Positions 1-35,787 of a stretch of DNA of 39,228 nucleotides are shown here, piece after piece. The notes under the pieces were generated by a model, which made no database searches, was not told the origin of the DNA, and saw nothing but the letters and a program-made list of their open reading frames with translations. Where the stretch lies: the IMG/VR virus record IMGVR_UViG_3300009593_000045, positions 1 through 39,228 of that record, one strand, 5' to 3'. The position numbers were made by a program, and so were the translations under genes. Position 1 is the first letter of the stretch. Each line of letters opens with the position of its first letter. This stretch comes from a virus.

Positions 1-1728
1 TACAAGTGTTCCTGTAGTAACTGTTAAATCACCTGTACTTGCACCTGTAAATGAACCTGTACCTATTAAGAATTTGTCTGCACTTTCGTCCCAACCTATA
101 AATGCGTTGTCTGAGTCTCCTCTTTCAAGAACAATACCCATATCATTTGCAGGTGTTCCTGTTGTACCATTTCCTAACTCAATCAATCTATCTGTAATTG
201 TTGAGTTTGTAGTATCTAAAGTTGTGGTTGTTCCGTTTACATCTAAGTTACCTGTAACTGTCAAATTACCTGTTGCAGCTACGTCTGCGAAAGTTACATT
301 TGAACTTGTTGCAACTGCTTGTCCAATTGCAATTTCACCACTTGATACAGTAACACCTGTTCCACCTGAGATATGCGCTCTTACTTCTGACGCACTTGGG
401 CCTGTATATGTAATAACACCTGTAGAGTTATTGTATGCAAGTGAACCGTCTCCACCTGAATCTGTTACGGAGACCTTTCCTCTGATTGTTGCGTCTGTGA
501 TTGCAAGGTCTACCGCACCGTCACCAGCATCGTCATATGTTGCAGTGATATTTGTGTGTGAACCGTTTGTAGCAAATTGTGCACCAACGATATCTTCTAT
601 TTCTTCTTCTGTTTTACCCGAAGACGCAATTGTTAAAGTATTAGCTGCATCGTCATATGTCAATGACATGTTTGTACCAGCTTGTAATAGTGCGTTAACT
701 CTATCGTCTACTCTTTCTGATGTATGATAAAGATTACTTGAGCCTTCTGACAAGTCATCAGTATCGAAACCTGAAATACTTGTTGTAAGGTCTATTGTTC
801 CATCTGCATCTTGATAGGTTGCTGTAATACCTGTTTCAGTATTACCAGTAAACATTGCACCAGCAATGTCCTGTATTCTTTCTGCGTTCATTGTCACATC
901 GCCAGAAGATACAGTAAAGTCTGTACCGTCAAATGTTGCGACACCAGCGTTTGTTTCTGTTGCAAGTTCCGCTGAATATGTGACTGTTCCTGAACTTTCT
1001 GCAACGTCTACACCTTCACCAGCTGCAAAGGTTATTGTTCCACCTAATGCTGTTGCAGTTGTATTACTGCCGTCTGAAACTGTAATTGATGAATTTGCTA
1101 GTTTAGCGTTTGCAATAGAACCTGCCAACATGGCATTTGTAATACCACTTGCTTTTACTCTTAAGGTATCTGAATCTGTTTCTATAGAACTATCGTCTAC
1201 TTGAACCGCAAGTGTGACATCTCCTGATGTTCCACCACCTGTTAGACCGTCTCCAGCAACAACCGATGTAATATCACCTACTGTTGTAGATAGAACACCG
1301 TTAGTTGCAGTAATACCTGTTCCAGCCATTGCGGTTGCAATGTCTGCTAATGTTTCTTTCTTAGAACTGTTGTCTGATGCATCTATAATTGCAACACTAT
1401 CGTTTGCAATATCTACTGTTGCAGCTGTTAATTCGTTTAGGTCTACTGCAAGGGATACATCACCTGATGAACCACCACCTGATAAACCGTCTCCAGCAGT
1501 TACGCCTGTTACGTCTCCAACTTGTCCGTTGATTGTTAATGTGCCTGCACTATCATCATATGTTGTAGAAATACCTGTTCCTGCTTGGATTAAGGCGTTA
1601 ACTCTATCGTCAACTTTTTCGTTAAAATCACTTCCTAGTGCGGCTGATTGTATAAGACCTGAGCTGTTGATAACCTCGGTTACCCCGATACTCAGTCCGT
1701 TTTTTACATGAAAATTCTTTGCAGCCAC
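1..1728 (-). CDS. Repetitive tail-fibre protein, C-terminus beyond left edge
   Basis: The frame is open from a GTG at 1728 to the left edge (576 codons seen), so the 3' end is missing. GTG is chosen because GGAGG lies 8 bases upstream (1737-1741) and an in-frame TAA is just above it. The product is Gly/Thr/Ser/Asn-rich and made of repeated beta modules: VDDRVNALIQAGTGI followed by a YDDS.GTLTI strand occurs twice, and GDGLTGGGTSGDVTLAV-type segments recur. Near the left edge comes a NLTVTGNLDVNGTTTT module followed by IELGNG and FIGWDES strands. These modules are typical of fibre proteins of marine T4-like phages, which recognise the host surface. It lies at the downstream end of the baseplate/fibre block, behind its own late promoter. 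The family assignment rests on composition and motifs; receptor and exact position in the virion are unknown. Confidence 0.8.
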   Translation of the reverse strand, partial: MAAKNFHVKNGLSIGVTEVINSSGLIQSAALGSDFNEKVDDRVNALIQAGTGISTTYDDSAGTLTINGQVGDVTGVTAGDGLSGGGSSGDVSLAVDLNELTAATVDIANDSVAIIDASDNSSKKETLADIATAMAGTGITATNGVLSTTVGDITSVVAGDGLTGGGTSGDVTLAVQVDDSSIETDSDTLRVKASGITNAMLAGSIANAKLANSSITVSDGSNTTATALGGTITFAAGEGVDVAESSGTVTYSAELATETNAGVATFDGTDFTVSSGDVTMNAERIQDIAGAMFTGNTETGITATYQDADGTIDLTTSISGFDTDDLSEGSSNLYHTSERVDDRVNALLQAGTNMSLTYDDAANTLTIASSGKTEEEIEDIVGAQFATNGSHTNITATYDDAGDGAVDLAITDATIRGKVSVTDSGGDGSLAYNNSTGVITYTGPSASEVRAHISGGTGVTVSSGEIAIGQAVATSSNVTFADVAATGNLTVTGNLDVNGTTTTLDTTNSTITDRLIELGNGTTGTPANDMGIVLERGDSDNAFIGWDESADKFLIGTGSFTGASTGDLTVTTGTLV

Positions 1729-4815: not shown

Positions 4816-4944
4816 TTATTTTTTCCTCGTATAATTCTGTTATTAATCCCACATGGGTATATCCATAATGAACCTATCCACTCACAATGTGGGTCGGAAC
4901 TCACTGGTTGTTCCCTTGATATGTGTCTTATACTATTTATACGA
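4816..4944 (-). other. Structured intergenic leader of the 475-residue fibre gene
   Basis: No gene fits this 129-base gap. It holds a late promoter, then inverted repeats on the transcribed strand: a 7-bp pair CCCACAT (4848-4854) with ATGTGGG (4887-4893), and a GGAAC/GTTCC hairpin with a 9-base loop inside 4894-4918. The ribosome binding site GAGGA lies next to the gene. The inverted repeats are seen in the sequence; a role as a translational control leader is inferred. Confidence 0.45.
4934..4941 (-). promoter_or_regulatory. Late promoter -10 box TATAAATA
   Basis: A perfect late -10 box just downstream of the stop of the 68-residue gene, on the minus strand. The predicted start near 4928 gives a leader of about 112 bases ahead of the fibre gene at 4815. 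Confidence 0.7.
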
Positions 4945-5153: not shown

Positions 5154-5486
5154 TTACCTCGTTACGCCTGGTGTTACTGTTGCTTGTCCTTCAACAACAC
5201 GACTTATTGAACCACTTCCGTCTGTTATCAATAAATCATATACATATCTTCCTGCTTCTAAAGCAGTTGTAACAGTATCAGTTAATGTCATTGTAACTGT
5301 TCCACCAACTCCATTATGTGAACATGTAAAGGTTGCAGCCGCATTTGAAGAACCATATGTTTTTCTTAATTGAGCAGTCGCAGTAAATCCAGTGAGATTC
5401 AATACATCACCTACTGTATCTGTTAAGTCAACTTGTATAGCAAAGTCTGTACCTTGGTCTATGAATATGTTTGCGATTATTGCCAT
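5154..5486 (-). CDS. Small baseplate-upper-protein-like beta protein
   Basis: A 110-residue protein, all beta by appearance. It starts MAIIANIFIDQGTDF and continues with VDLTDTVGDVLNLTGFTATAQLRKTYGSS, then a long YVYDLLITDGSG strand near the end. This pattern resembles the N-terminal domain of BppU-type baseplate proteins and the small Ig-like structural proteins of marine T4-like phages. Its ATG is exactly 5 bases downstream of a TATAAATA late box, and no Shine-Dalgarno sequence is visible, so the mRNA may be leaderless. A baseplate or fibre adaptor role is an inference. Confidence 0.7.
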   Translation of the reverse strand: MAIIANIFIDQGTDFAIQVDLTDTVGDVLNLTGFTATAQLRKTYGSSNAAATFTCSHNGVGGTVTMTLTDTVTTALEAGRYVYDLLITDGSGSISRVVEGQATVTPGVTR

Positions 5487-5491
5487 TTAAC

Positions 5492-5499
5492 TATTTATA
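5492..5499 (-). promoter_or_regulatory. Late -10 box five bases from the start codon
   Basis: TATAAATA, then GTTAA, then ATG on the minus strand. With T4 late spacing (box at -13 to -6) the predicted +1 is the A of the ATG at 5486, giving a leaderless message. The same geometry occurs before gp25 and before the gene at 28663. Confidence 0.65.
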
Positions 5500-5503
5500 C
5501 CTA

Positions 5504-6844
5504 TTATGATTTACTAAATTGAGCTGCAGGAACTGTTTGGTGAATTTTTTCTAATGTTCCTTGGTCATTTACATAAACTTCTTGTAATTTTCTTAAAGTT
5601 CCAGCGTCATTTAAGTATACTGCTTTAACTTTGGCAGCCGCACCAATACTTCTAGTTGTAGAATATGCTTGTTGGAAAATATAACTCAACTGATAATTCT
5701 GTTGGAAAGGATATGATTGTTGTGCATTTGCAGGATACGTACCACGTGCATCAGCAGGATAAGTAAATGGATATCTTGCTTGGTAATTAAACGGATAACT
5801 AGTTTGTTTATTTGCAGGATATGGAAATCTTCCCCGAGCATTTGCTTGGTAATTAAACGGTTGTTGTCCATCAGCAGGATATCTTCCACGTGCTTGATAA
5901 GTTGCAGGATATGGGTATCTCGCTTGATAGTTAAATGGATATCTTGCCTGATAGGTATACGGATACCTTCCCTGTCCAGTTCCATTGGAAATGTATGGTT
6001 GTTGGTTTTGAGTTGTAAACGGATACCTTCCCCTTGACGAATATGTCTGTTGCACCCTTGGGGTACTTGTGTATGGTTGTTGAAAAGAATAGACATCTTG
6101 GAACCATATACCTGGCCCTATATCTTCAAATTGAAGCATTCTTCCGATTGCAGGTCTTTGAGCGAGAAAAGTTTGGGGTCTACGACCCTGATTCTGTGTA
6201 CTGTATTGGCCAGGCCCAGGCTGTATGAATGGATAAGGAGTTTGGAAAAATACAAGTTGTCCTTTAGGGCCAATATCACCCATAGGTGTTCGACCTCTGG
6301 CGTCATGTGCGTTTGCCGAAAATCCAGTAGATGGATATGTATACGGTTGTTGCACAGCTGCAGGTCTTCTTGCAATATATGGATATCGCCCTTGGTTGTT
6401 TGTAGGACTAGGTCTTCTTGCCTGATAGGTATACGGAAATGGATACCTTCCCTGTGCATCAGCAGGATACGTACCACGTGCACTTGCAGGATATCTTCCA
6501 CGTGCTTGATAGTTTGCAGGATAAGGATATCTCGCTTGGTAAGTAAATGGTGTTTGTCCTATCGCAGGATAAGTAAATGGATATCTTCCCTGTGCTTGAT
6601 ATTCAGATGGTGTTTGACCTATTGCAGATGCAGGATATCTACCTCGAGCGTTAGCTTGATAAGTAAATGGATATCTTGCTTGATAAGTAAATGGTGTTTG
6701 ACCACTTACAGCTCTTTGTACCTGTAAATCACCTGTGACAGCTTTCTGACCTTGATAAGGTTGTTGGAAAGTTCCTGATTGACCTAGTTGTCCTAGTTGA
6801 CTATGCGGAGCATTCTTGGTGTTTATATATATTTCGTCTGCCAT
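5504..6844 (-). CDS. Tyr/Pro/Arg/Gln-repeat adhesin-like virion protein
   Basis: A 446-residue protein with three parts. Residues 1-45 are Gln/Gly-rich. The large middle is degenerate repeats such as RYPFTYQA, RYPFNYQA, RYPYPANYQARG and GRYPASARG, interrupted near residues 190-270 by a different segment (GDIGPKGQLVFFQTPYPF...LQFEDIGPGIWFQDVYSFQ). The last 50 residues carry VYLNDAGTLRKL and VYVNDQGTLEKI, a paired motif found at the ends of marine phage fibre proteins. The repeat has almost no Asp, Glu, Lys or Cys but is very rich in Tyr, Pro, Arg, Gln and Ala. It lies between fibre genes. A flexible adhesive or spacer role is inferred; no known function. Overlapping open frames in this stretch are artefacts of the repeats. 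Confidence 0.75.
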   Translation of the reverse strand: MADEIYINTKNAPHSQLGQLGQSGTFQQPYQGQKAVTGDLQVQRAVSGQTPFTYQARYPFTYQANARGRYPASAIGQTPSEYQAQGRYPFTYPAIGQTPFTYQARYPYPANYQARGRYPASARGTYPADAQGRYPFPYTYQARRPSPTNNQGRYPYIARRPAAVQQPYTYPSTGFSANAHDARGRTPMGDIGPKGQLVFFQTPYPFIQPGPGQYSTQNQGRRPQTFLAQRPAIGRMLQFEDIGPGIWFQDVYSFQQPYTSTPRVQQTYSSRGRYPFTTQNQQPYISNGTGQGRYPYTYQARYPFNYQARYPYPATYQARGRYPADGQQPFNYQANARGRFPYPANKQTSYPFNYQARYPFTYPADARGTYPANAQQSYPFQQNYQLSYIFQQAYSTTRSIGAAAKVKAVYLNDAGTLRKLQEVYVNDQGTLEKIHQTVPAAQFSKS

Positions 6845-6861
6845 TACACATTACTCATTCA

Positions 6862-8451
6862 CTATATTACAAACCAAAGGTGACCGTCCGAAGTTGAACC
6901 AACTGCGCCTGGAGCTGAGTTAGTAACTTCATAGTCAACTTGCACGTCATTTGCATTGACTTTAATCCCTTTACCTGCGCCGATATTTATGGTGTTTTCT
7001 CCTGTAGCTTCTGTAGTTGCAAGTAAACCAGCACCACTTTCAATATCACTGTGAATGGTTAATGTATTAGCGGAATCATCATATGTTAAGTCGATACCGT
7101 TTCCACCGACTAGTCCACCACCACCTAAGAAGTCTAAAACATCTTCATTACCGTATAAAGCATTACCATTAATAGTTAAAGTATTACTTGCATCGTCATA
7201 TGAAGTTGTTATACCTGTTCCACCAACTAATAATGCGTTAACTCTATCGTCAACTCTTTCGTTTGTGAAATATAAATTACTTGAACCCTCTGTTACTGTA
7301 TCAGAAGTAGCTTGGTCTGTTGGTTCATATCTACTATTACTTGAACTATAAACAAGTATCTGACCGTTACTTGGGGCACTTCCACCAACATCACTTAATC
7401 CTGTAATACTATGGTTTGCAATACCTGAAACTGTTCCTGTTAAGGAACCTGTAAATGTACCAGTAATAGTTTTATTTGTTAATGTTTGAGTTGCACTTGT
7501 TCCAACCAACTCTTGGTCTCCACCTTTAGGAAGTGTTAATGTATTTGTAACACCTTCACTGTGTGGTTGTGGTTTAATTGTTTGACCGTGTGAGTTAGCA
7601 TGACAGTTAAGTTTAATCTGTCCTTCTGTTGAACCCCCACCTCTGAATTCTGTTATGTATGTAGCTGCGGTAACCTGAACATTACCTGAACTTGAAGTTA
7701 ACGGCCCAATGTGTGTTCCTGTAGTATCACCTGCAACGTTACCTGTTAAGTTACCAGCAAATGCAGTAGAAGTTATACTTGTCCAACCAGTACCATTACC
7801 ACCAGTAAATGTTCCCGTTCCGTCTGTAATTGTCGGAGCAGTAAATGTATGTCCAGTATCAACTGATAGATTACCGTCAACTTTAGTTACACCTTCTAAC
7901 TGTATGTTTATACCAGTATCTAATGAAGTTATAGAAGGAGTATTGTTTGCATTTAATATGATACCATTACTATTATGGTTAAAGATTGTATTGTTTGCAG
8001 TTTCTGTAAATAAAGAACTACCACCGACACCACCGCCCTGAACTGTTAAGAATGAACCAGTAAAGGCATGGATTGCAATTTTATCACCTAGGGTAGCAGC
8101 TGAAATAAGTGTAATCTTTTTGAATGTTCCGTCTGATTGTTGACTTGCTAAAACATAGTCGTCACCAACTCTTAACAATGCACCATTTTTATAAACCTGT
8201 ATTCTATCTTTCTTGTATACTAGGTCATTACTAAATGCGTCATTTCCTGTAAATTCAGTCTGACCACCGTCTGCAGTATAAAGGAACTCTTGATAGAAGA
8301 ATGTTTTATCTTCTATACTATTGATTGCGTCTATTAGATTTCCTTTAACGTCAGTTCTTAAGCCAGAGATATCCCCAACGTCATTTGCTAAATCGTTGTA
8401 ACGAGTTCTAAAGTTTTCTAACGTACTAAATTGGTCAATTGTTTTTGCCAT
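6862..8451 (-). CDS. Tail-fibre-like structural protein
   Basis: A 529-residue protein. The N-terminus (MAKTIDQFSTLENFRTRYNDL, then NDVGDISGL and NLIDAINSI) is the conserved attachment region of fibre proteins in marine T4-like phages. It is followed by a module IQVYKNGALLRVGDDYVL...ITLISAATLGDKIAIHAF. Later parts contain repeated sequence TGTFTGSLTGTVSGI and two VNALLVGGTGITTSYDDASN-type modules shared with the fibre gene at 1-1728. It ends HLWFVI at a TAG followed directly by TGA, a tandem stop. Its start overlaps the 3' end of the 79-residue gene by 17 bases, with only a weak GAGAGA ribosome binding site. Confidence 0.78.
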   Translation of the reverse strand: MAKTIDQFSTLENFRTRYNDLANDVGDISGLRTDVKGNLIDAINSIEDKTFFYQEFLYTADGGQTEFTGNDAFSNDLVYKKDRIQVYKNGALLRVGDDYVLASQQSDGTFKKITLISAATLGDKIAIHAFTGSFLTVQGGGVGGSSLFTETANNTIFNHNSNGIILNANNTPSITSLDTGINIQLEGVTKVDGNLSVDTGHTFTAPTITDGTGTFTGGNGTGWTSITSTAFAGNLTGNVAGDTTGTHIGPLTSSSGNVQVTAATYITEFRGGGSTEGQIKLNCHANSHGQTIKPQPHSEGVTNTLTLPKGGDQELVGTSATQTLTNKTITGTFTGSLTGTVSGIANHSITGLSDVGGSAPSNGQILVYSSSNSRYEPTDQATSDTVTEGSSNLYFTNERVDDRVNALLVGGTGITTSYDDASNTLTINGNALYGNEDVLDFLGGGGLVGGNGIDLTYDDSANTLTIHSDIESGAGLLATTEATGENTINIGAGKGIKVNANDVQVDYEVTNSAPGAVGSTSDGHLWFVI

Positions 8452-33759: not shown

Positions 33760-34650
33760 TTATTCAAAAAAATCAGTCAGTGACGACTGCTCCTTATTTC
33801 TTATTTTATCTGAGTTAACTTCTAACTCCCCTTGTTTACGAAACACTAGAACGTACTCATGTACTTTACTAGTATATCTTTTACTTGCACATTTACCCAT
33901 TTGTAAAGCTGCAAATATGGTGTCGTTCTTCATAACAATAACGTCATGAAGTTTTAGACCTGCCATTGTGAACATATTTATACAATCAGAATGGAAGGGT
34001 ATGTATTCACCGTCCCGTCTCCAATCTCCGCATACCCATACACAAAATCCGCCAGGCACTAAAACTCTTTCTATATTTTGGGCACATACTTCTATACGAT
34101 TACGAAACTCAGTATAACTTCGTATATCTGATAACTGTCCGTCTGCACTTTCATATCTTTCGATATCTCCATACGGTGGACAAGTCATAACTAATTGTGC
34201 ACATTCATCATCAGTATGAGACATTTCACAACCGTCACCTTCTACAATATCATAGTGACCGTCAAAGGCATGTCTTGACATTTCTGATTTAACTTTAGTT
34301 ACAGTTGTTGGTGATACATCATAACCAACGTAATCTCTTCCTAGTGAAGCAGATACAAATGCTCTTGTCATTCTACCTGCAAATGGGTCAACGATTGTAT
34401 CGCCAACCATACTCCAATAATGAACAATGTTCTCACACAATCCTGCGTGGAACTCAGACATCATTAAACCATTTGGTAGTCTAGGACATTCTCCTCTCTT
34501 CTCTTCATATGCAGTCAAGTATGCGTCTTCCCAATTTGACTTAGACGCTTTACTTGGTGTTATGACTGATAGAGGAGTCCAACCAAATTGGTCAACGACT
34601 CTTTCGTTCTCGTTGAATGGTAATATGTTTTTATAGTATTCGCTTTTCAT
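33760..34650 (-). CDS. DNA methyltransferase with C-terminal clamp-binding peptide
   Basis: A 296-residue protein of the amino-methyltransferase (N4/N6) type. S-adenosylmethionine motif I is [17 protein letters not shown] (residues 86-102), with YVGYDVSP following. The catalytic motif IV is [11 protein letters not shown] (156-166). Further on come [16 protein letters not shown] and HEYVLVFRK. Motif I precedes motif IV, and the Cys in TCPPY is unusual (S/N/D-PPY is the norm). Residues 288-296 are QSSLTDFFE, a perfect QxxLxxFF clamp-binding box at the very C-terminus, like the one on gp33. No restriction enzyme is adjacent. It may mark phage DNA at the replication fork. Target sequence is unknown. 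Confidence 0.82.
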
Positions 34651-35747: not shown

Positions 35748-35787
35748 TATTGTATTGCATTGTATCGCATTTTATCGCATTGTATCG
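35748..35787 (-). repeat. Four tandem 10-base repeats before the gp32 ribosome binding site
   Basis: On the minus strand: CGATACAATG, CGATAAAATG, CGATACAATG, then CAATACAATA, directly followed by GGAG. The second unit contains the stop codon (TAA) of the upstream gene. A candidate cooperative binding site for gp32 on its own mRNA, by analogy with the unstructured A/U-rich operator of T4 gp32. Confidence 0.65.

What the first reader, a model, noticed from the sequence alone, without database searches (positions are those of the whole stretch)
5504..6844. Tyr/Pro/Arg/Gln repeat protein resembling adhesive or phase-separating proteins
Most of the 446 residues are degenerate RYPFTYQA-like repeats with almost no acidic residues, Lys or Cys. 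Arg/Tyr-rich low-complexity repeats act as cation-pi stickers in condensing proteins, and Tyr/Pro-rich short repeats occur in mussel foot proteins. Such a protein in a phage fibre block could be an unusual adhesive appendage or flexible linker. It ends with two VYVND.GTL motifs typical of phage fibres, so it is probably a virion part.
Basis: partly seen in the sequence, partly recalled or inferred. Interest (0 to 1): 0.75.

Follow-up and report, generated by a model that had tools for sequence, protein, structure and literature searches.

The report
Phage fibre zipped by complementary protein strands
This gene of an uncultured marine phage encodes a fibre-like protein whose two long repeat arms are length-matched, mirror-image partners of one another, residue by residue, much like two strands of a nucleic-acid hairpin; no such long sequence-coded protein duplex turned up in the databases or papers searched.

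Summary
In detail: a 446-aa minus-strand ORF, rich in Tyr/Pro/Arg/Gln repeats, under purifying selection, sits in a conserved T4-like fibre block. The 'adhesive or condensing disordered protein' reading does not fit. The repeats keep a strict two-residue register (Y, F, A, G on one face; P, Q, R, T, N on the other). The protein consists of a conserved base, arm 1 (residues 47-159), a variable tip, arm 2 (267-379) and a conserved base. The arms are complementary in mirror order: Y/F faces A/G, P faces Q/R, T faces N. In relatives the arms often lie on two separate genes, in either order, yet their lengths match (165-549 aa; r=0.99) and each arm picks its own partner. The partner ranked first in 33 of 34 cross-validated and 25 of 25 held-out cases, and cross-locus pairs in the same phage do not match. 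Best explanation: an out-and-back, antiparallel beta fibre zipped by a residue-pairing code, with a fast-evolving tip that probably binds the host. Pairing is strongly supported by sequence; beta structure, oligomeric state and virion location are inferred. AlphaFold2 on single chains gave nothing usable. I found no described family built this way.

The parts
5504..6844 (-). repeat-arm fibre protein, 446 aa (single-ORF form, locus 1)
   Evidence: relatives; dN/dS
6707..6844 (-). N-terminal base, residues 1-46 (MADEIYIN... conserved)
   Evidence: identical to L002 over 1-48; MADEIYIN near-invariant in 12 orthologues
6368..6706 (-). arm 1, residues 47-159
   Evidence: mirror pairing with residues 379-267, 80% favourable pairs
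6047..6367 (-). tip, residues 160-266, non-pairing and fast-evolving
   Evidence: pairing score falls below zero; about 46% identity to L002 here against 84-85% in arms
5708..6046 (-). arm 2, residues 267-379
5507..5707 (-). C-terminal base, residues 380-446, with VYLNDAGTL / VYVNDQGTL unit
   Evidence: phrog_13729 match 401-437, E=3e-7; weak beta strands 406-411, 416-425, 431-438 in a low-confidence AF2 model
5154..5486 (-). LtfC-like gene always directly downstream of the repeat gene(s); possible adaptor or chaperone
   Evidence: phrog_3304 E=4e-23 'L-shaped tail fiber protein assembly'; synteny
6862..8451 (-). fibre-like protein (529 aa) directly upstream, also in relatives
   Evidence: phrog_697 structural protein; synteny
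1..1728 (-). fibre-like gene that in relatives directly precedes repeat locus 2; cut by the window end, so locus 2 of this phage lies outside the window

Best explanation
The gene encodes a phage fibre whose chain runs out along arm 1 (47-159), makes a variable tip (160-266) and returns along arm 2 (267-379), so that both conserved ends lie together at the virion-proximal base. The arms are extended (beta) strands paired antiparallel, residue by residue, under a pairing code: on one face an aromatic (Y/F) sits opposite A/G, on the other P sits opposite Q/R and T opposite N/S/D. The code fixes register, fibre length and choice of partner. In many relatives the two arms are made as two proteins that would have to zip together; the same code works there. 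SHOWN from sequence: parity, matched arm lengths, mirror complementarity, partner specificity, orthogonality of the two loci, purifying selection, synteny. INFERRED: beta conformation, direct contact, oligomeric state (a trimer of hairpins would give a six-stranded needle), length of about 37 nm (113 pairs at 3.3 A), place in the virion, receptor binding by the tip.
For: (1) Parity: P-to-P distances up to 20 residues are even in 1661 of 1828 cases in 40 relatives; relative to P, Y is 1408:22, F 455:22, A 1166:109 on the other parity. (2) Arm lengths: 46 hairpins, r=0.991, mean difference 4.8 aa against 52 for shuffled partners (minimum 34 in 10,000); arms were delimited by composition only. 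(3) Mirror complementarity: correlation of large with small residues -0.60 on average, best register within 6 residues of the expected one in 40 of 46 (7 expected); parallel orientation gives no such register. (4) Pair table over 34 non-redundant hairpins: Y-Y 2 (216 expected), A-A 5 (152), P-P 28 (313), Y-A 818 (368), P-Q 1134 (445), T-N 592 (119). (5) Cross-validation between loci: own partner first in 33/34. (6) Hold-out on contigs not used before: 25/25 first, +1.06 against -0.03 (sd 0.22) bits per pair, length r=0.997, arms 181-549 aa. (7) Window itself, with a matrix trained on locus 2 only: 113 pairs, 80% favourable, +1.37 bits per pair against -1.55 (sd 0.30, maximum -0.47) in 2000 parity-preserving shuffles. 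(8) Orthogonality: in three window-type phages own pairs score +1.14 to +1.23, cross-locus -0.58 to -0.18. (9) Not an RNA or DNA inverted repeat: codon reverse-complement match 0.225, average over registers 0.232. (10) Double changes: L013/L025 have 47 pairs changed on both sides (30 expected); of 27 previously compatible pairs 18 stay compatible, against 6 or 5 if only one side had changed. (11) Ends conserved, tip divergent.
Against: AlphaFold2 on the single chain (pLDDT 30) and on a central hairpin piece of a relative (pLDDT 43) gave no structure. No solved relative, no isolate found to carry it, so there is no virion evidence. Pro about every 8 residues is unusual in beta strands. Locus 1 of the L083/L088/L090 group pairs only weakly (+0.05 to +0.09, with register slips), and single-ORF relatives L010, L032 and L037 were not resolved without gaps. 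Pooled over all related pairs the double-change excess is modest (363 against 267). Hairpins share ancestry, so counts overstate independence.
Confidence: 0.72

Rival explanations
1. Disordered low-complexity 'sticker' protein (Arg/Tyr cation-pi, condensate or mussel-like glue) in the fibre block.
For: Composition; AF2 pLDDT 30; Y-R pairs are enriched.
Against: Strict parity, matched arm lengths, mirror complementarity with partner specificity: none is needed by a disordered glue.
Confidence: 0.06
2. The complementarity is real but reflects packing of the two strands around a common core of a trimeric needle (constant cross-section: one large and one small residue per level), not direct side-by-side pairing in one two-stranded ribbon.
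For: T4 gp37 needle has a glycine in a beta strand (G921) packing against F970 of another subunit (PMC6957217); large/small compensation is the main signal on one face.
Against: The other face (P with Q/R, T with N) is just as selective, which a buried core alone does not explain.
Confidence: 0.3
3. The mirror symmetry is a by-product of how the repeats arose (duplication, inversion, gene conversion), not of selection for pairing.
For: Arms are built from the same short words; lengths match.
Against: No simple DNA event turns PFTYQ into PANAQ in mirror order; reverse-complement match is at background; parallel register gives no signal; gene order of the two arms differs between phages.
Confidence: 0.03

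Closest known systems
T4 long tail fibre gp37 distal needle
   Same: Thin phage fibre made of long beta strands, variable receptor-binding tip, aromatic packing against Gly in the core; chain running down and back is from my own knowledge of the crystal structure.
   Different: No sequence similarity; no HxH iron motif here; gp37 has, to my knowledge, no 8-residue repeats or residue-pairing code, and its needle is about 15 nm; here arms reach 549 aa and may be two proteins.
T4 gp5 / VgrG triple-stranded beta-helix
   Same: 8-residue repeats, alternating in/out residues, phage spike.
   Different: Motif VxGxxxxx is absent from the arms; three identical chains wind round one axis; no partner arm of complementary sequence.
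Mussel foot proteins, FUS-type or other Arg/Tyr low-complexity proteins, glutenin Tyr/Pro/Gln repeats (own knowledge)
   Same: Tyr/Pro/Gln/Arg-rich short degenerate repeats.
   Different: No fixed parity or mirror partner is known for them; here register and partner are encoded.
Donor-strand exchange pili and tandem beta-zippers (own knowledge)
   Same: Intermolecular beta-strand pairing defines assembly.
   Different: Short single strands, no long length-matched complementary sequences.

Membership tests
T4 gp37-type needle fibre | detectable sequence relation to solved phage fibres | tested here: not met
T4 gp37-type needle fibre | HxH iron-binding motifs in the needle | tested here: not met
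   no HxH in the 446 aa (sequence)
T4 gp37-type needle fibre | chain runs out and back, antiparallel, tip variable | tested here: inconclusive
   sequence complementarity and tip divergence support it; no structure
T4 gp37-type needle fibre | homotrimer | not testable with these tools
   only single-chain prediction available
gp5/VgrG triple-stranded beta-helix | VxGxxxxx octapeptide repeats | tested here: not met
   motif; arms carry no such repeat
Arg/Tyr low-complexity condensing or glue protein | disordered chain without fixed register or unique partner | tested here: not met
Tailed-phage fibre/baseplate virion protein | encoded in the structural fibre block | tested here: met
   synteny in all mapped loci, T4-like baseplate genes in window
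Tailed-phage fibre/baseplate virion protein | present in virions | not testable with these tools
   no isolate found to carry it
Any named Pfam, PHROG or NCBIfam family | match over the repeat arms | tested here: not met
   only the C-terminal 37 residues hit phrog_13729 (unknown function)

The most novel reading that the evidence does not exclude
A natural protein 'double strand': two polypeptide arms, on one gene or on two separately expressed genes, zip antiparallel over 110 to about 550 residues under an amino-acid pairing code that sets register, length and partner, and two orthogonal such pairs are used in the same virion.
Probability: 0.75. Interest if true: 0.95.

Novelty: categorically new. 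Interest (0 to 1): 0.9.

Why it matters
If right, nature has a readable pairing code for long beta strands: a short table predicts which protein strand binds which, in what register, over hundreds of residues, with orthogonal pairs in one virus. That would be a new principle for building fibres of set length, a direct test bed for cross-strand pairing rules that protein designers lack, and a function for a large class of uncultured marine phage genes that present tools read as low-complexity noise (199 relatives by one N-terminal domain alone).

Tried and rejected
AlphaFold2 on the whole protein with 12 orthologues and on a 150-aa central hairpin piece of L033 with 6 relatives: no usable model, so no fold search was run. 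tblastn in isolate phages with four queries: only spurious or very weak matches. Syntenic block of HTVC008M, Mosig, Melnitz and a cyanophage: no such protein. PDB sequence search: nothing. Bacterial genomes: one contig, apparently a phage contig placed in a Sphingobacteriales MAG. RNA-hairpin or DNA-inversion origin of the mirror symmetry: rejected. Parallel pairing: rejected. Gap-length parity between orthologues points the same way (2682 even, 740 odd) but is partly circular, because parity-constrained sequences align best with even gaps, so it is not used as main evidence. Literature searches found T4 fibre precedents but no description of complementary-strand fibres; only open-licence papers could be searched.

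Full report
WHAT IS THERE. The window is a 39,228-base virus record of a T4-like marine phage: baseplate proteins of the gp6, gp25, gp5 and gp8 families, tail tube, tape measure, exonuclease and ssDNA-binding protein are recognisable. The nearest isolates by gp8 and by the giant DUF4815 protein are Pelagibacter phages Mosig and HTVC008M and the Methylophilales phages Melnitz, about 34-38% identical. The finding is a 446-aa ORF on the minus strand, 5504-6844. It is under purifying selection.

A STRICT TWO-RESIDUE REGISTER. Identity autocorrelation is high only at even lags and below chance at odd lags. In 40 distinct relatives 1661 of 1828 proline-to-proline distances of up to 20 residues are even. 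Residues fall on two faces: Y, F, A, G, H on one; P, Q, R, T, N, I on the other (Y 1408 to 22). The unit is about 8 residues (RYPFTYQA) but lengths of 6, 10 and 12 are common. That is the pattern of a long extended strand, not of a coiled coil, collagen or polyproline helix, and not required of a disordered chain.

TWO LOCI, EACH WITH TWO ARMS. The mapped relatives share one gene order wherever the contig is long enough: gp8, DUF4815 protein, a 68-84-aa protein, a fibre, the repeat gene(s), an LtfC-like gene, several fibre genes, then a second repeat locus. The window ends before the second locus. A composition-based three-state segmentation, which knows nothing of pairing, shows that each locus has two repeat arms: either in one ORF around a middle part, or split over two neighbouring ORFs, of which one carries the N-terminal base and often a tip domain and the other starts directly with repeats and carries the C-terminal base. 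Gene order of the two is reversed in some phages (L051, L061, L069, L098, L103, L106).

THE ARMS MATCH IN LENGTH. In 46 arm pairs (165-325 aa) the correlation is 0.991 and the mean difference 4.8 aa; shuffled partners differ by 52 aa on average and never by less than 34 in 10,000 shuffles. In 25 further pairs from new contigs the lengths run from 181 to 549 aa with r=0.997.

THE ARMS ARE MIRROR-COMPLEMENTARY. If arm 1 is read backwards from the tip against arm 2, large residues face small ones: mean correlation -0.60, best register within six residues of the expected one in 40 of 46; non-cognate arms reach only -0.29 and parallel alignment -0.34 at scattered registers. The pair table (34 pairs below 70% identity) is close to a code: on one face Y and F sit opposite A and G, H opposite N, S and T opposite Q; on the other P opposite Q and R, T opposite N, S or D. 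Y-Y occurs 2 times with 216 expected, A-A 5 with 152, P-P 28 with 313. In this code the word PFTYQ is the antiparallel partner of PANAQ.

TESTS AGAINST CIRCULARITY. The register used for the pair table was chosen by the large/small signal, so the table was cross-validated: matrices learned on locus 2 were applied to locus 1 and the reverse. The true partner ranked first among about 34 arms in 33 of 34 cases (+1.00 against -0.24, sd 0.45 bits per pair). With the locus-1 matrix frozen, 25 of 25 held-out locus-2 pairs from newly fetched loci, all below 70% identity to the training arms, ranked first (+1.06 against -0.03, sd 0.22). Within one phage, arms of locus 1 do not match arms of locus 2. 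The symmetry is not at the nucleic-acid level.

THE WINDOW PROTEIN. With a matrix that never saw locus-1 proteins, the best mirror axis is at residue 213. Residues 47-159 pair with 379-267: 113 pairs, 80% favourable, +1.37 bits per pair, against -1.55 (sd 0.30) in parity-preserving shuffles; every 11-residue stretch printed from 47 to 159 scores above 0.6, and the score turns negative in the tip, 160-266. Against its nearest relative L002 the N-terminal base is identical, arms 84-85%, C-terminal base 92%, tip about 46%. The gene is the most divergent in its block (79% against 90-98% for the neighbours compared in L052).

HOW IT MOST LIKELY WORKS. The chain runs out and back; the ends form the base on the virion, the tip faces the host. 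The strands are held by cross-strand pairs in which one partner is large and one small, with prolines on one face limiting sideways growth (inference). Because both sides of a pair must match, the code fixes register and choice of partner, which matters when two loci and up to four arms are made in one cell. Precedent for the packing: in the T4 gp37 needle a glycine in a beta strand packs against a phenylalanine of another subunit (PMC6957217). The oligomer is unknown; a trimer of hairpins would be a six-stranded needle.

WHAT IS NOT SHOWN. No structure, no binding data, no virion data. AlphaFold2 on single chains failed, which says little for an obligate assembly with few homologues. One group of locus-1 proteins (L083, L088, L090) pairs weakly with slips, and the single-ORF forms L010, L032 and L037 were not resolved without gaps. 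Confidence by step: mirror pairing of the arms 0.93; extended beta-like conformation 0.8; virion fibre 0.8; receptor-binding tip 0.55.

NOVELTY. No Pfam, PHROG, NCBIfam or PDB match over the arms; no isolate phage was found to have it; the papers that could be searched describe nothing of the kind. As a phage fibre it is a member of a broad known kind; as a way of building a fibre, from long complementary protein strands under a pairing code, I know of no precedent.

Noticed in passing
L062:18304-19713, L051:18588-19799, L082:17643-19043 and similar ORFs in L066, L095, L097, L098, L102, L103: In many relatives the locus-2 protein ends, after arm 1 and a glycine-rich linker, in a Hint (intein/hedgehog-type) self-processing domain with CF..GT, TxxHP-like and (in most) a C-terminal HN motif; it could cut itself off or join the two arms after zipping.
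   Followed up: partly
L051, L061, L069, L098, L103, L106 (locus 2): The order of the two arm genes is reversed compared with other phages, yet the arms still match.
   Followed up: yes
L083:8686-9921 and L083:17619-19031: In one clade the two loci carry near-identical tip domains (PDPA.WGPYPVTGGLLSS...), suggesting tip exchange between the two fibres.
   Followed up: no
L053:19196-20719, L056:19677-21245: A protein of about 510-525 aa that follows repeat locus 2 matches phrog_28018 (unknown function) and may be its partner or cap.
   Followed up: no
L051 (JAAXIF010000105.1): A contig assigned to a Sphingobacteriales MAG has the same phage gene block, so it is probably a misbinned phage contig or a weak host hint.
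   Followed up: partly
window 5492-5499 and 4934-4941 (-): TATAAATA, the T4 late-promoter consensus, lies just upstream of the LtfC-like gene and of the 475-aa fibre gene; 7 copies in the window, all on the minus strand, 3.5 expected on both strands.
   Followed up: partly
window 33760-34650 (-): A DNA methyltransferase-like gene (phrog_12517 / phrog_498) sits between the tape measure and DNA metabolism genes.
   Followed up: no
window 35749-35787: A short 10-bp tandem repeat (ATTGTATCGC, about 4 copies) between genes.
   Followed up: no
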